Shown here piece by piece: positions 11,430 through 24,697 of a stretch of 35,052 nucleotides of DNA. The stretch comes from an uncultured Bacteroidia bacterium (GTDB taxonomy: Bacteria > Bacteroidota > Bacteroidia > Bacteroidales > UBA932): the NCBI GenBank assembly GCA_902766255.1, contig CACXCS010000018.1:1-35052 (forward strand), read 5' to 3'. Under the pieces are notes generated by a model, which searched no databases, was not told where the DNA came from, and saw only the letters and a program-made list of their open reading frames with translations. Made by a program: the position numbers and the translations under genes. Each line of letters begins with the position of its first letter. The stretch's first letter is position 1.

Positions 11430-11726
11430 CCACCACTACTGTTGATCATGCTCCAGTTAGTCTCATCCAATGTTTAAGGTGGGGTTAGCTTGAGTTTAAA
11501 AAAAACGCTGCCACACAAATTAAAGGCAATATATTAGTAATCAGTTTGTTACGATTACACTCCATGGAAGATCCGTACGCAGCGAGGAGACCTTCTACGT
11601 CTATCTGCTTCAGAATGCTGTATACACAACCCTGCCGTGGACAACTGTTTCTAAAGTTTGTGTTTGTGGCGATATTTTGCAATATTTGATGCAGCGTTGC
11701 ATAAAGGCAAGGCTCTAAACTTAATT
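11430..11726. other. Non-coding left flank of the RAYT gene
   Basis: I find no convincing gene here. The stretch is AT-richer than its surroundings, has an A-run near 11500, and contains the left copy of the degenerate repeat described at 11562-11660. Two partial TAnnTTTG-like strings occur near 11675-11690 but at uncertain spacing to the start. Confidence 0.6.
11562..11660 (+). repeat. Left degenerate direct repeat flanking the RAYT gene
   Basis: Shared blocks in the same order as the copy at 12757-12852 are ATGGAAG(a/g)TCC, CGCAGCGA, ACCTTC, CCCTG, GTGGAC and, at the end, GTTT. The hairpin formed by the right copy is decayed here (GAAG...CTTC only). Both copies point the same way as the transposase gene. 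Confidence 0.6.
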
Positions 11727-12605
11727 ATGGAAAGATTTCAACAATCAGAGATTGTCGGATACTATCACATTTGCTCCGACGGTAATTACTCATTGGTATT
11801 ATTTCAAGACGAAGAAGATTTCAAGGCGGCGATGAACCGGGTGGCGGTCTGCGTACTTAAGACTGGCATTATTATCATTGCTTTTGTGCTGATGGACAAC
11901 CACTTTCATTTTGAGGTGAAAGCCTGCAGTTCCGAACAATGTACATCATTTATAAACGAGTTCAAGCGCCTGACAGGGCAATACAATCAGCGTAAGTACG
12001 GCGACAGAAACTCTCTCGACTCTCTCCCAATCCAGATTATTCCATTAACCACTGAGGACTATGTGCGCACTTTGCTTTGCTACATCATCAAAAATCCCAC
12101 AAAAGCCAGGGTTGAAATGTTTTACGATTATCGTTGGGGAACTGGCAACCTGTATTTCAGGACAGAAAGACAGAAACGGGAATACATTACTGCAGGCAGT
12201 CTTGGGGTCAACCAGTGCAGACGAATTTTCAGAACAAGAACCCGCATTCCCGACAACTGGCGAATAGTCGATGAGGTTATCACGCCGGAGAACTACGTTC
12301 CTGTTGAAGATGTTCAGCAACTGTTTAAGACCACCCGGTCATTTATGTATTTTTTGTCTCTCAACAAAGATGACGAAATTGAGCAAGGCATGGGGGAATG
12401 GCATGAGATAAGCCTGAAAGACAGCGAATTACGATCAATCAGGAATGAATTGTCGCTAGAGCTCTTCGGCATTGGAAAAATACATTCTCTCTCTGCCCCT
12501 CAACGCCATAAACTCGCTAAGATTATCCGCAGACAATACCTCTGCTCAAAAAAGCAAATCGCACGCATCGTCCAACTCCCCTACGATCAATTATCCGATT
12601 TGTAG
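11727..12605 (+). CDS. REP-associated tyrosine transposase (IS200/Y1-like, RAYT)
   Basis: This protein has 292 residues. The Y1 single-strand transposase fold is shown by 'SDGNYSLVLFQDEEDF' and by 'FVLMDNHFHFEV', which holds the HUH metal motif (His59, His61). 'FKRLTGQYNQRKYG' follows, then 'LCYIIKNPTKAR', whose Tyr119 is the likely nucleophile (compare YIxxNP in the family). The C-terminal ~110 residues include a putative helix-turn-helix ('SKKQIARIVQLPYDQL'). RAYTs are normally single-copy, non-IS genes that act on nearby hairpin repeats; here a repeat with a perfect 11-bp hairpin lies just downstream. The start at ATG 11727 is chosen because the fold begins there. Codon use is visibly AT-richer than in neighbours, suggesting horizontal acquisition. 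Confidence 0.85.
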   Translation: MERFQQSEIVGYYHICSDGNYSLVLFQDEEDFKAAMNRVAVCVLKTGIIIIAFVLMDNHFHFEVKACSSEQCTSFINEFKRLTGQYNQRKYGDRNSLDSLPIQIIPLTTEDYVRTLLCYIIKNPTKARVEMFYDYRWGTGNLYFRTERQKREYITAGSLGVNQCRRIFRTRTRIPDNWRIVDEVITPENYVPVEDVQQLFKTTRSFMYFLSLNKDDEIEQGMGEWHEISLKDSELRSIRNELSLELFGIGKIHSLSAPQRHKLAKIIRRQYLCSKKQIARIVQLPYDQLSDL

Positions 12606-21651: not shown

Positions 21652-23142
21652 ATGAGCAATTACTTCTTTGACATGCTCCCGAAGGAGGAGTTCGAAAGGC
21701 TTCCTTACCTTCCTACAATGGGAGAATTTGTGGACTGGTTCACGAAAGAGTATGCCGACAATCCGGCTATCTCCGATCAAGTTAACACCATCACTTACAA
21801 GGAATTGGGTGAGCGCGTAGCACGCCGCAGGGCTTTCCTTGAAAGCCTCGGCCTGCCTAAAGGCTCGCATATAGCCATATTCGACAAGAACAGCCAGGAT
21901 GCCATCGAGATGTTCCTGGCGGTAACCTCCGCAGGATACGTGGCGATGAACTTTCCCGCCGCCCTGCCCGAGCCCGCGGTCATCGGTTCCTGCATGAAAT
22001 TCGATGTGAGCGCCATCATGGTCCGCGACGAGTTCATGCCCCTTACCGCCAAACTCCAGGGTGTTAAAGTTTGCCCCGTCAGTTCCATAGCCGAAACAGG
22101 CGTTCCTTCCACGAAGGTCGATCCCGACAGCCCCGCAGCCATCTTCTTCACAGGCGGTACCACCGGTACTCCCAAGGGCGCGGTGCTCAATCACAGGGCT
22201 CTCATGAGAGGTAACTACAATACCATCTTCAAGCCCGGCAAGGTTATCGGCGTACACCGCTACATAGCCATCCTGCCCCTCAGCCACGTGTTCGGCCTCA
22301 TCGCCGGTACCATGGGTTGCTTCTACACCGGCAACCTCATCTTCACCTGCGAGGATATGAAGGCCACCATCGGTAAACTCCCAGTCCTCAAGCCTACCCT
22401 TCTGGTCATCGTGCCCGGTGTGTGCGACATCCTCGCCGGCCTGTGCAAGATGTACGGCCCTCAGTTCCTGGGCGGAAGCCTGCGCCTTATCATTTCCGGC
22501 GCAGCCAACGTTCCCCCGAGGCTTGTCGACATCTTTACCAAGATGGGCGTAGAGTTCTGCTTCGGCTACGGCCTTACTGAAACCGCCAATCTTACCTCGG
22601 CCAACGCCGATGCCCTCACACACCCCACCTCCATCGGTAAGATCTACCCTGGCCAGCAGACAAAAGTGGTTGACGGTGAGCTTCTTATCAAGGGCGACAA
22701 TGTCTTCTCCGGCTACTACAAAGACCCCGAGAAAACCGCCGAGGCCTTTACCGAGGACGGATGGTTCCGTACCGGCGACCTTGTACGCTTCGACGACGAA
22801 GGCTTCCTGTACATCACCGGCCGCATCAAGAACCTCATCATCCTTGCCAACGGCGAGAATGTCAGCCCAGAGGCCCTCGAGGAGCCGTTCTACGCCGATC
22901 CTTGCGTACGTGACGCCATGGTCAAGGAGGATGATCTGAACGGCAACAAAGTGATTGCTGTTGAGATACTTCCGTTCGCTCCCGCATTCGACGGCAAGAG
23001 CCCCGAGGAGATTGCCGCATACATGAACGCGCTGGTTGACAAAATCAACGCAACCCTGCCTTCTACCCACCAGATCCGCAAAGTAACCGTGCGCACCGAG
23101 GATTTCAAGCGTACCGGAAGCATGAAAGTTGCGCGCGTATGA
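21652..23142 (+). CDS. AMP-forming acyl (or aryl) ligase of the ANL superfamily
   Basis: This 496-residue adenylate-forming enzyme activates a carboxylic acid as acyl-AMP and passes it to CoA or a carrier protein. Motifs are 'FFTGGTTGTPKGA' (P-loop), 'FGYGLTET', 'WFRTGDLVRFDDEGFLYITGR', the hinge and 'ANGENVSPEALEE', and the catalytic Lys in 'KRTGSMKVAR' close to the C-terminus. It overlaps the carrier-protein gene by ATGA, so the acceptor is probably that protein rather than CoA. The substrate cannot be read from the sequence. Confidence 0.9.
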   Translation: MSNYFFDMLPKEEFERLPYLPTMGEFVDWFTKEYADNPAISDQVNTITYKELGERVARRRAFLESLGLPKGSHIAIFDKNSQDAIEMFLAVTSAGYVAMNFPAALPEPAVIGSCMKFDVSAIMVRDEFMPLTAKLQGVKVCPVSSIAETGVPSTKVDPDSPAAIFFTGGTTGTPKGAVLNHRALMRGNYNTIFKPGKVIGVHRYIAILPLSHVFGLIAGTMGCFYTGNLIFTCEDMKATIGKLPVLKPTLLVIVPGVCDILAGLCKMYGPQFLGGSLRLIISGAANVPPRLVDIFTKMGVEFCFGYGLTETANLTSANADALTHPTSIGKIYPGQQTKVVDGELLIKGDNVFSGYYKDPEKTAEAFTEDGWFRTGDLVRFDDEGFLYITGRIKNLIILANGENVSPEALEEPFYADPCVRDAMVKEDDLNGNKVIAVEILPFAPAFDGKSPEEIAAYMNALVDKINATLPSTHQIRKVTVRTEDFKRTGSMKVARV

Positions 23143-23384
23143 CGAAGCAGGAAGTATTCGACGGCCTCAAGGAGTTGATCGCCGGCATGCGTCCCAATAC
23201 GGACCTTAGCAAAGTTACTTACGATACCGAGCTCGTACGCGAGCTTGGTATCGATTCGTTGTTCATGATTCTCCTCTCCCTCGCAGTGGAGGAGAAGTTC
23301 AAGATGAGATTCCCCGACGGCCAGGCTGCGCCTACTACGGTGGGAGAAGTCTGCGAAACAGTGCTCTCTCAGTTAGAACAATAG
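23139..23384 (+). CDS. Acyl carrier protein-like protein
   Basis: This 81-residue protein has the phosphopantetheine site 'ELGIDSLFM' with Ser40. The overall helix pattern and length match ACP, although the usual 'DSLD' is 'DSLF'. It is less acidic than fatty-acid ACP and lies in an operon with an AMP ligase, so it is a dedicated carrier rather than the housekeeping one. The start overlaps the ligase stop by ATGA. A large hairpin follows 12 bases after the stop. Confidence 0.9.
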   Translation: MTKQEVFDGLKELIAGMRPNTDLSKVTYDTELVRELGIDSLFMILLSLAVEEKFKMRFPDGQAAPTTVGEVCETVLSQLEQ

Positions 23385-23396
23385 CCTCGGCGCTAT

Positions 23397-23470
23397 CTGA
23401 GCGATAATAACAGACTCCGGGCCCCTTTTCCAAAGTTTTATGGGGCCCGGAGTCTGTTATTATCGCTCAG
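23397..23470. terminator. Long perfect hairpin between convergent genes (copy 1 of a related pair)
   Basis: Two 29-base arms (23397-23425 and 23442-23470) are perfectly complementary around a 16-base loop TTTTCCAAAGTTTTAT. It lies between the stops of the carrier-protein gene and the GNAT-like gene, so it can act as a terminator for both strands. The inner 11 bp and the loop resemble the hairpin at 24626-24697 read on the other strand. Confidence 0.85.
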
Positions 23471-23479
23471 CTAAAAAGC

Positions 23480-24610
23480 CTAGAGATTTTTGACGTAGCT
23501 GCGGCGGCGCTGATAAGGCACCGGGTCGTAGCCTGCGAAAAGCGACTGCACCTTGTGATTCTCCTCCAGCTGCGGGTTGAGTAACATCCGCTTGATTCCC
23601 AGGCGGATGTAATTTTCATGCAAGTGCTTGAACATCAGCAGCGCAGCTCCCTTGGCCTGATACTCGGGGAGTACGCCAATGAGCAGGGCTTCCACAGTAT
23701 CGTTGTGGCGCAGGGACTTGAGGATAGGGATCCATCCGAACGGGAAAATGCGGCCCTTGGCCTTGCGTACGGCAGCTGAAATATGGGGCATAGTGACTGT
23801 AAAGCCCACAAGCTCGTCCTTGTCGTTGACGGCGAATGCCACCAGATCCTTGTTCAAAACAGGAACGTACTGCTTGACATAACCGTCAATCTGGTCCTCC
23901 GACAGCTTGGTATACTCATACAGAGGGGCAAAAGCCTCGTTGAGCACGTGGAACATCTCGCGCCCGCGCTTGGCCATCTTGGAAAGGGTGTTGGCGGTGT
24001 AGATGTGCACGCCGTAGCGCTTCTCCACCAGGTCGGCATACTGGAGCATGGGAGGAAGCTGCTCCGGAAGATTGATGACGCGCTGCGTCCAGTCCACATC
24101 TTTGGTGAAGCCCAGGCGCTCGAGGTATTCGCCATAGTAGGGGAAATTATAGATGACGGTAAAAGGACTTTCGTTCTCGAAACCATCAACCAGAAGGCCC
24201 TCACGGTCCATGTCGGTAAAGCCCAGGGGGCCTTTTATCTTTTCTGCGCCCTTGGCCCTGCCCCATTCTATTACTTTGTCGATCAGCGCCTTGACAACCT
24301 CAAAATCGTCCACGAAATCTATCCATCCAAAGCGCACCGTATGCTCGTTCCACTTTTTGTCGGCATTGTGATTGATAATTGCCGCCACACGTCCCAGGAC
24401 CTTGCCGCCGGCGTCGATTGCCAGATACAGCTCACGCTCGCAGAACGCCAGTGAGGGATTGTCGGGCCCAAGGGATTTGAACTCGTCGTCCTCGAAGGCG
24501 GGCACCCACTTGTCGCAGTCTTTATATAAATCGATAGGGAACTGAATGAATTGCCGAAGCATCTTCTTGCCCGTTACGGGCACGATTTCAAAGGTTTTAG
24601 TACTTTGCAT
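23480..24610 (-). CDS. GNAT-fold acyltransferase-like protein (YghO-like)
   Basis: This 376-residue protein starts 'FEIVPVTGKKMLRQFIQFPIDLYKDCDKWVP', typical of a conserved two-part GNAT-like family in Bacteroidota and proteobacterial YghO. 'LAIDAGGKVLGRVAAIIN' and 'KIKGPLGFTDMDREGLLVDGFE' form the first part. The C-terminal half has 'GFTVTMPHISAAV' and 'EALLIGVLPEYQAKGAALLMFKHLHE', which looks like the acyl-CoA-binding beta4-alpha3 region. The substrate is unknown; lipid N-acylation is a possibility given the acyl-ligase/ACP pair opposite, but this is weak inference. It is a single gene bracketed by two related long hairpins. Confidence 0.75.
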   Translation of the reverse strand: MQSTKTFEIVPVTGKKMLRQFIQFPIDLYKDCDKWVPAFEDDEFKSLGPDNPSLAFCERELYLAIDAGGKVLGRVAAIINHNADKKWNEHTVRFGWIDFVDDFEVVKALIDKVIEWGRAKGAEKIKGPLGFTDMDREGLLVDGFENESPFTVIYNFPYYGEYLERLGFTKDVDWTQRVINLPEQLPPMLQYADLVEKRYGVHIYTANTLSKMAKRGREMFHVLNEAFAPLYEYTKLSEDQIDGYVKQYVPVLNKDLVAFAVNDKDELVGFTVTMPHISAAVRKAKGRIFPFGWIPILKSLRHNDTVEALLIGVLPEYQAKGAALLMFKHLHENYIRLGIKRMLLNPQLEENHKVQSLFAGYDPVPYQRRRSYVKNL

Positions 24611-24625
24611 TATGATTTGCTTTCA

Positions 24626-24697
24626 AACATCGGCAGGTGTCCCTCCAGGAGCCATTAAACATGGGAAAAGGCTCCCGGAGGGACACCTGCCGATGTT
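24626..24697. repeat. Long near-perfect hairpin between divergent genes (copy 2 of a related pair)
   Basis: Arms 24626-24653 and 24670-24697 pair over 28 bp with a single A-C mismatch (24647/24676) around a 16-base loop. Read on the minus strand the loop is TTTTCCCATGTTTAAT, 13 of 16 identical to copy 1. Unlike copy 1 it lies upstream of both neighbouring genes, so simple termination does not explain it. A GATGTTTG string in the left arm, read on the minus strand, could be a -7-like element for the GNAT gene. Confidence 0.85.

What the first reader, a model, noticed from the sequence alone, without database searches (positions are those of the whole stretch)
23397..24697. Two long hairpins with a shared 38-base core bracket one gene
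Hairpin 1 (23397-23470) has perfect 29-bp arms and hairpin 2 (24626-24697) has 28-bp arms with one mismatch; both loops are exactly 16 bases. Read on opposite strands, the inner 11 bp plus loop align: CTCCGGG(CC/AG)CC, then TTTTCC(A/C)A(A/T)GTTT(T/A)AT, then the second arm, about 30 of 38 identical. The outer stem differs but stays complementary in each copy. Compensated arms with a conserved core are a sign of a family of structured elements under selection or of mobile hairpins. Copy 1 could be a terminator between convergent genes, but copy 2 sits between divergent promoters where no terminator is needed. The inverted pair encloses only the GNAT-like gene 23480-24610.
Basis: seen in the sequence. 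Interest (0 to 1): 0.7.

Follow-up and report, generated by a model that had tools for sequence, protein, structure and literature searches.

The report
Mobile hairpin family with conserved loop
The two long hairpins belong to a family of small mobile DNA palindromes scattered through some gut Bacteroidales, whose loop is conserved and can flip while the stem changes freely yet stays almost perfectly paired, sometimes inside essential genes.

Summary
A loop-only pattern finds 10 places in this genome, and all 10 sit at the tip of a 24-37 bp near-perfect stem. A covariance model finds 19 distinct copies here and high copy numbers in a few other species of the genus. Across 74 copies the loop (mostly 16 nt) and the inner 12 bp carry nearly all sequence information. 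Beyond that the stem is close to random between copies, yet 2006 of 2094 pairs are Watson-Crick. At shared sites in different species the loop is inverted at 6 of 10 sites, and at 1 of 2 further sites. Copies lie between genes of every orientation and in open frame inside atpG, truA and dnaG. One species holds two 91%-identical 68-bp copies in unrelated flanks. Best reading: an RPE/REP-like selfish palindrome whose stem is re-copied and whose loop is flipped by replication template switching. It lacks the GTAG/CGTC tags, and Y1 transposase (RAYT) presence does not track it. The mobiliser is unknown.

The parts
23397..23470 (+). Hairpin copy 1 (HP1): arms 23397-23425 and 23442-23470, loop 23426-23441 (TTTTCCAAAGTTTTAT), between convergent ACP-like and GNAT-like genes
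   Evidence: model R1 79.0 bits
24626..24697 (-). Hairpin copy 2 (HP2): arms 24626-24653 and 24670-24697, loop 24654-24669 (read on -: TTTTCCCATGTTTAAT), between divergent GNAT-like and FAD-oxidoreductase genes
   Evidence: R1 80.9 bits; same site in G113 (L143/L140) with loop inverted
23414..23453 (+). Conserved core of HP1: inner 12 bp + 16-nt loop + inner 12 bp
   Evidence: per-position information over 74 copies
24642..24681 (-). Conserved core of HP2
23480..24610 (-). GNAT-like gene between the two copies; bystander
   Evidence: Pfam PF00583; related loci without either hairpin
23139..23384 (+). Acyl-carrier-protein-like gene ending 12 bases before HP1; neighbour only
   Evidence: Pfam PF00550
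24740..26197 (+). FAD-dependent amine oxidoreductase gene starting after HP2; neighbour only
   Evidence: Pfam PF01593

Best explanation
HP1 and HP2 are two of at least 19 copies in this genome of a short (about 60-80 bp) selfish palindromic element. SHOWN: copies have a conserved tip (loop mostly 16 nt, consensus TTTTCCCATGTTTTAT, plus about 12 inner base pairs ending ...CCGGGGCCC) on a lower stem of about 15 bp whose sequence differs from copy to copy but is paired. The same site may hold a copy in one species and be empty, or hold a short remnant, in another. In one assembly the whole hairpin occurs twice in unrelated flanks. The loop is often inverted between species at the same site. Copies lie in open frame inside conserved genes. 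INFERRED: after insertion the palindrome extrudes as a hairpin or cruciform during replication, and polymerase template switching copies one arm from the other (erasing mismatches, so arms drift together) and sometimes inverts the loop. The tip stays recognisable because it is what an unidentified enzyme, possibly one that acts on single-stranded hairpins, recognises when the element is copied, or because younger copies have had no time to decay. The element probably does nothing for the host and persists where it is harmless: beside stop codons, in intergenic gaps and in permissive protein linkers.
For: Ten of 10 loop-pattern hits carry arms. R1 finds 23 matches = 19 distinct places in G000, 21 matches in G031, 19 in G056 and 10 in G055. 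Of nine aligned copies, 23 of 26 stem pairs change on both sides, 0 of 500 shuffles reach the score, 91 cells have both sides changed and 3 one side. Of 74 copies, 88 mismatches in 2094 pairs; information is 0.45-1.64 bits at stem positions 1-12 and mostly 0.2 or less beyond, the outermost positions resting on few copies. GT/TG 37 against AC/CA 24 mismatches, p 0.12, so no clear G-U preference. Loop flips at 6 of 10 unambiguous shared sites (one of the six, L069/L178, rests on a decayed loop); G338/G208 a clean flip, one base shorter, with arms nearly unchanged. Whole-hairpin duplicate with unrelated flanks. Remnants L175, L177 and L185. Open-frame copies in truA, atpG and dnaG. At the atpG linker 5 of 29 located species have a long hairpin, each with different paired arms, one with a decayed loop. 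Template switching is published as producing both arm homogenisation and spacer inversion (PMC8604942, abstract and one section read) and as creating and maintaining hairpins (PMC8794818, abstract and start of introduction seen).
Against: No mobilising enzyme was found. Only one same-genome pair that I saw (G338) shares whole arms. Among 65 copies, pairs of outer arms with 7 or more of 13 bases alike number 125 against about 58 in shuffles: the closest are orthologues, the rest is a weak residue that could be shared descent, so arms are not wholly independent, yet most copies are either old or have had their arms re-made. At shared sites loop (136 of 162) and inner stem (101 of 120) are more conserved than outer stem (97 of 145), p 0.0005 and 0.002 (one pair per site), which could mean host selection on the tip; but such sites were found partly through the tip, which inflates this. 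At one site (L126/L004 against L128) the inner arms changed as a block while the outermost 12 bp stayed, which simple drift does not explain well. Many copies lie within a few bases of stop codons between convergent genes, as a useful terminator would.
Confidence: 0.62

Rival explanations
1. A REP/BIME family moved by a RAYT (Y1 single-strand transposase).
For: Dispersed hairpins, one adjacent pair of opposite orientation in G031 (L062), intragenic copies as reported for REPs (PMC3733652 abstract); Y1_Tnp matches in this genome, one in the window.
Against: No GTAG tag at either foot of 72 copies, CGTC 2 on one side against 2.6 expected, no foot motif. Stems 21-37 bp against 5-13 (GTAG) and 8-9 (CGTC) in PMC3733652. 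No copy near 25 RAYT loci. Y1_Tnp is common in species with no copies. G338, G208, G283 and G187 carry copies and show no Y1_Tnp match at E<=0.001, though they are only 89, 82, 83 and 66% complete.
Confidence: 0.12
2. A host-useful structured element (bidirectional terminator, mRNA-end stabiliser, or protein-binding DNA hairpin) kept by selection on fold and loop.
For: Tip more conserved than outer stem at shared sites; strong pairing; many copies a few bases after stop codons, 14 of 74 called convergent.
Against: Patchy: 25 of 400 congeneric genomes have a match at E<=1e-6 (at most 12 candidates scored per genome); the loop pattern is in none of 20 relatives of the first draw; shared sites are often empty in relatives; copies inside atpG, truA and dnaG and between divergent genes; loop orientation flips; no T run follows HP1 or HP2 on either strand by eye; G-U intermediates rare. 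The terminator scan allows loops of 3-8 only and so cannot judge these hairpins.
Confidence: 0.15
3. Only the 40-nt tip moves; the outer stem is made at each new site by copying the neighbouring target DNA in reverse.
For: Information drops sharply after stem position 12. In G031 locus L073 the left outer arm contains the end and stop codon of the native gene, so the right arm is the copy.
Against: The G338 pair shares 25-27 bp of arm with unrelated flanks. Outer arms show a weak excess of similarity over shuffles. By eye, in the HP1, L014/L013 and L063 sites the arms are not found in relatives' flanks (for L063 only one flank could be seen).
Confidence: 0.09
4. Ordinary unrelated intergenic hairpins with chance similarity, or an assembly artefact.
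For: Some contigs end inside hairpins and two G056 contigs fold back on themselves with arms of at least 90 bp (L123, L124).
Against: Loop match 10 of 10 with arms; copies in MAGs of several accession series; shared sites with syntenic flanks.
Confidence: 0.02

Closest known systems
Rickettsia palindromic elements (RPE); known here through PMC6649704 passages, the primary papers were not seen
   Same: Palindromes inserted in frame within protein-coding genes without abolishing the protein; selfish reading.
   Different: Different bacteria. That paper says Rickettsia elements lose repeat identity over time, whereas these arms stay almost perfectly paired while their sequence changes; the loop and inner stem define the family. 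No RPE sequence was compared.
GTAG- and CGTC-tagged REPs (PMC3733652: abstract and passages read)
   Same: Small dispersed palindromes, sometimes paired, sometimes intragenic; CGTC type reported in Bacteroidetes.
   Different: No tag at the foot, stem mostly two or more times longer, no RAYT link found.
Coding palindromes of nematomorph mitochondria (PMC6649704: abstract and passages read)
   Same: Perfect inverted repeats in coding genes; the authors discuss conversion between arms and template switching.
   Different: In what I read there no repeated core joins the copies; here all copies share one tip.
Template-switch arm homogenisation and spacer inversion (PMC8604942: abstract and one section; PMC8794818: abstract and start of introduction)
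   Same: The two signatures, matched double changes and inverted spacers, are the ones seen here.
   Different: In the section read, yeast genes with spacers of 2-5 bases; here the spacer is 15-18 bases and belongs to a dispersed bacterial repeat.

Membership tests
Dispersed small palindromic element (RPE-like) | Many copies with the same palindromic core at unrelated places | tested here: met
   19 distinct places in G000; 74 copies compared
Dispersed small palindromic element (RPE-like) | In-frame insertion in conserved genes that stay open | tested here: met
   atpG, truA, dnaG; protein function not tested
Dispersed small palindromic element (RPE-like) | Sequence homology to a published RPE family | not tested
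   no RPE sequences at hand; one primary paper asked for and not held
Dispersed small palindromic element (RPE-like) | Mobility: presence/absence at shared sites, copies in unrelated flanks | tested here: met
GTAG/CGTC REP | GTAG or CGTC tetranucleotide at the hairpin foot | tested here: not met
   72 copies: GTAG 0; CGTC 2 on one side (2.6 expected)
GTAG/CGTC REP | Association with a RAYT gene | tested here: not met
   not exhaustive, genomes incomplete
MITE with terminal inverted repeats | Conserved ends, target-site duplication | tested here: not met
   Conservation lies at the centre; outer arms and flanks carry almost none. Target duplications could not be judged
Intrinsic terminator | GC stem followed by a T run | tested here: not met
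   By eye no T run follows HP1 or HP2 on either strand. The scan allows loops of 3-8 only and is no test of these stems; it flagged one 5-pair stem nested in HP2
Known Rfam family | Match above gathering score | tested here: not met
   only a tRNA in the window
Template-switch evolution of a hairpin | Both-sided changes without G-U intermediates, and spacer inversion | tested here: met

The most novel reading that the evidence does not exclude
A class of mobile DNA defined only by its hairpin tip: an unidentified enzyme recognises the loop and upper stem, and the lower stem is sequence-free because replication keeps rewriting it as a matched pair. The element therefore keeps its structure while changing its sequence, escapes recognition by homology, and acts as a standing source of new in-frame peptides in essential genes such as atpG.
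Probability: 0.3. Interest if true: 0.78.

Novelty: new variant of a known kind. Interest (0 to 1): 0.6.

Why it matters
Compensatory change in a stem is normally read as proof of selection on RNA structure. Here is a natural, replicated case in which dozens of stems covary almost perfectly while the evidence points to DNA-level copying, and in which loop flips mark the copying events. That makes the rate of template switching at palindromes measurable in nature. It also warns against calling such covarying hairpins functional RNAs, and shows palindromes feeding new sequence into essential proteins.

Tried and rejected
Terminator reading: genomic contexts, in-gene copies and absence of a T run speak against it as the general role; the scan could not test it. 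RAYT-driven REP: tag, proximity, presence and a tree of 26 rows; not supported, not excluded. Phage carriage: the viral scan gave 4 matches without arms. Rfam: nothing but a tRNA. Target-copied arms: first favoured, lowered after the G338 pair. Literature: palindromic repeat + Bacteroidales + hairpin (1 paper, unrelated by title), REP + Bacteroides/Prevotella (4, unrelated by title), REP + RAYT + Bacteroidetes (8 listed, two on REPs or their transposases, one of these read in part) and palindromic element + Rickettsia (5 listed) showed no description of this family in what I saw; the library lacks most subscription papers.

Rows dropped: of 120 model hits I kept 74, leaving out opposite-strand hits on the same place, hits at contig ends (L077, L183, the second L087 hit), and weak hits (L059, L060, L061, L078, L083, L090, L091). 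L012/L028/L123/L124 (fold-back contig ends) were not counted. In one search, pairs with one flank only (L001/L063, L085/L071, pairs with L086) and pairs whose hairpins may not be the same one (L121/L058, both flanks matched and scored as flipped; L026/L062, tandem) were left out of the 10 sites. In one search, L238/L248 (one flank alignable, no flip) was left out of the 2. Gene calls are crude (longest open frames; 9 of 74 too near an end; several in-CDS calls doubtful, such as L140, which lies between genes). The hairpin control (89 distinct hairpins of score 20 or more in 983 kb of held loci, 74 with loop words of the family) is biased, as loci were chosen around copies.

Full report
CHECK. 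The two hairpins are as described: HP1 23397-23470 with perfect 29-bp arms, HP2 24626-24697 with 28-bp arms and one mismatch, both with 16-base loops. Both fold far better than shuffles and are the only hairpins in the window with score 20 or more.

FAMILY. A pattern for the loop and two closing pairs, with no demand for arms, matched 10 places in the 2.03-Mb genome (reversed control 1). All 10 are the tips of hairpins with 24-37 bp arms. A covariance model from nine of them gives 98.7% paired cells, 23 of 26 pairs with changes on both sides and no shuffle of 500 as high. It finds 23 matches, 19 distinct places, in this genome. Among 61 congeneric genomes 14 have a match at E<=1, with 10-23 matches in G000, G031, G055 and G056. 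Among 400, 25 have a match at E<=1e-6, with 5 or more in eight: G000, G031, G055, G056, G113, G271, G283 and G338 (at most 12 candidates scored per genome). The loop pattern alone is in none of the 20 relatives of the first draw. An exact scan of 84,980 species genomes gave 29 stretches, 27 in Bacteroidales or Bacteroidia MAGs (where the title names a source, rumen or omasum) and one each in Bacillus and Thermodesulfobacteriota. The hairpin scan printed the arms for 24 of the 27; one more (L125) is seen; two matches lie at base 2 of their stretch, so arms cannot be seen; the two outsiders showed none. The genus is probably Cryptobacteroides; that name is recalled and from no call.

ANATOMY. 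In 74 copies the loop is 16 nt in 51, 17 in 16, 18 in 5 and 15 in 2. Stem positions 1-12 from the loop carry 0.45-1.64 bits. Beyond that positions mostly carry 0.2 bits or less (the outermost few rest on few copies), while 2006 of 2094 pairs remain Watson-Crick. Other lineages have their own tip variants: copies of G338 and G208 close with GGC and have 15-16 nt loops, mostly beginning TTTTCCC; those printed for G283 mostly have 17-18 nt loops. No motif lies outside the foot.

WHERE IT SITS. By crude gene copies lie between codirectional, 14 between convergent and 9 between divergent genes, 17 were called inside a reading frame (several doubtful) and 9 were too near an end. Three host genes were checked by Pfam: tRNA pseudouridine synthase, ATP synthase and DNA primase. 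At the atpG linker 5 of 29 located species have a long hairpin: G113, G056, G000, G031 and G055. Their arms are not alike, all are paired, and the G000 loop is decayed. The linker varies from 61 to 121 residues over those 29.

HOW IT CHANGES. At 10 sites with syntenic flanks on both sides the loop is inverted at 6: HP2/L140, L114/L141, L126+L004/L128, L079/L089, L069/L178 (loop of L178 decayed, orientation from the model), L082/L076. It is unchanged at L013/L014, L008/L125, atpG and dnaG (alignments). G338 against G208 shows a clean inversion, one base shorter, with arms nearly unchanged (L235/L252) and a second site without inversion (L236/L247). Double changes outnumber single-sided ones 91 to 3 cells, and mismatches show no clear G-U excess (37 against 24, p 0.12). 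Both are expected if one arm is copied from the other, a published effect of polymerase template switching that also inverts the spacer (PMC8604942, abstract and one section read; PMC8794818, abstract and start of introduction seen). Apparent central deletions leave short palindromes (L175 against L066, L177 against L068) or half hairpins (L185 against L084).

HOW IT MOVES. G338 holds two copies about 2 kb apart, 91% identical over 68 bp, in opposite orientation, with unrelated flanks, so the whole hairpin was copied, whether by a transposase or by a local copying error. Some sites present in G031 are empty in relatives: L073 in G055 and G056, L067 in G113 and G056, while in G055 and G000 its downstream flank could not be aligned. 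Gain is the simpler reading for these. In L073 the left outer arm includes the host gene's own stop codon, so there the right arm must be the copy. Outer arms of different copies show only a weak excess of similarity: 125 pairs with 7 or more of 13 alike against about 58 in shuffles, orthologues included. How most copies acquired unlike arms is not settled: old copies whose arms were rewritten, arms made at insertion, or both.

WHAT MOVES IT. Unknown. Y1_Tnp matches occur in 29 of 40 congeneric genomes tested, carriers or not. None of 25 RAYT loci has a copy nearby (best E 0.19). In a tree of 26 RAYT rows no clade holds rows of all four carriers and of no other species, but it samples only part of the hits. 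Four of 8 further carrier genomes (G338, G208, G283, G187) have no Y1_Tnp match; all four assemblies are incomplete.

THIS WINDOW. HP1 and HP2 are independent insertions. Of 30 loci around GNAT relatives, one being the window's own, only G113 has another hairpin of the family, at the HP2 site with the loop inverted; at the HP1 site it has an unrelated 14-bp hairpin. The GNAT gene is a bystander.

VERDICT. A real family of small mobile palindromes, not described in what the searches showed, closest in behaviour to Rickettsia palindromic elements and REPs. It fails the REP tag test; homology to RPEs was not tested. Its evolution by arm copying and loop flipping is well supported; its mobiliser and any host role are open.

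Noticed in passing
window 11658-12605 (+): Divergent Y1 (RAYT-like) transposase gene; Pfam Y1_Tnp just below the cut-off (21.2 of 23 bits); no family hairpin near it.
   Followed up: partly
L284 (G112 atpG) and L295 (G053 atpG): The same atpG linker in G112 carries two smaller palindromes (arms TCTGTTTGCAAAA and AATTCCGTTCGCAAAA, loops AGGGGCTT and TGGGGCGT); G053 has a similar repeated peptide. Possibly a second palindromic family in coding DNA.
   Followed up: no
L096 2380-2427 and L099 2380-2427: A hairpin with a 19-bp arm beside an orthologous RAYT gene in G031 and G055; arms identical, loops look inverted relative to each other. May be the true REP of that RAYT.
   Followed up: no
L123, L124 (G056 contig ends): Contigs end in fold-back palindromes with arms of at least 90 bp around a family hairpin; probably assembly fold-back. 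Several other contigs break inside hairpins, so copy numbers are likely underestimated.
   Followed up: no
L184, L083, L091: A coding region with several imperfect loop-like words, suggesting repeated old insertions in one gene.
   Followed up: partly
atpG linker between KLVAS and SSMCG, 29 species (L276-L305): The ATP synthase gamma linker varies from 61 to 121 residues across the genus, unusually variable for a core enzyme.
   Followed up: partly
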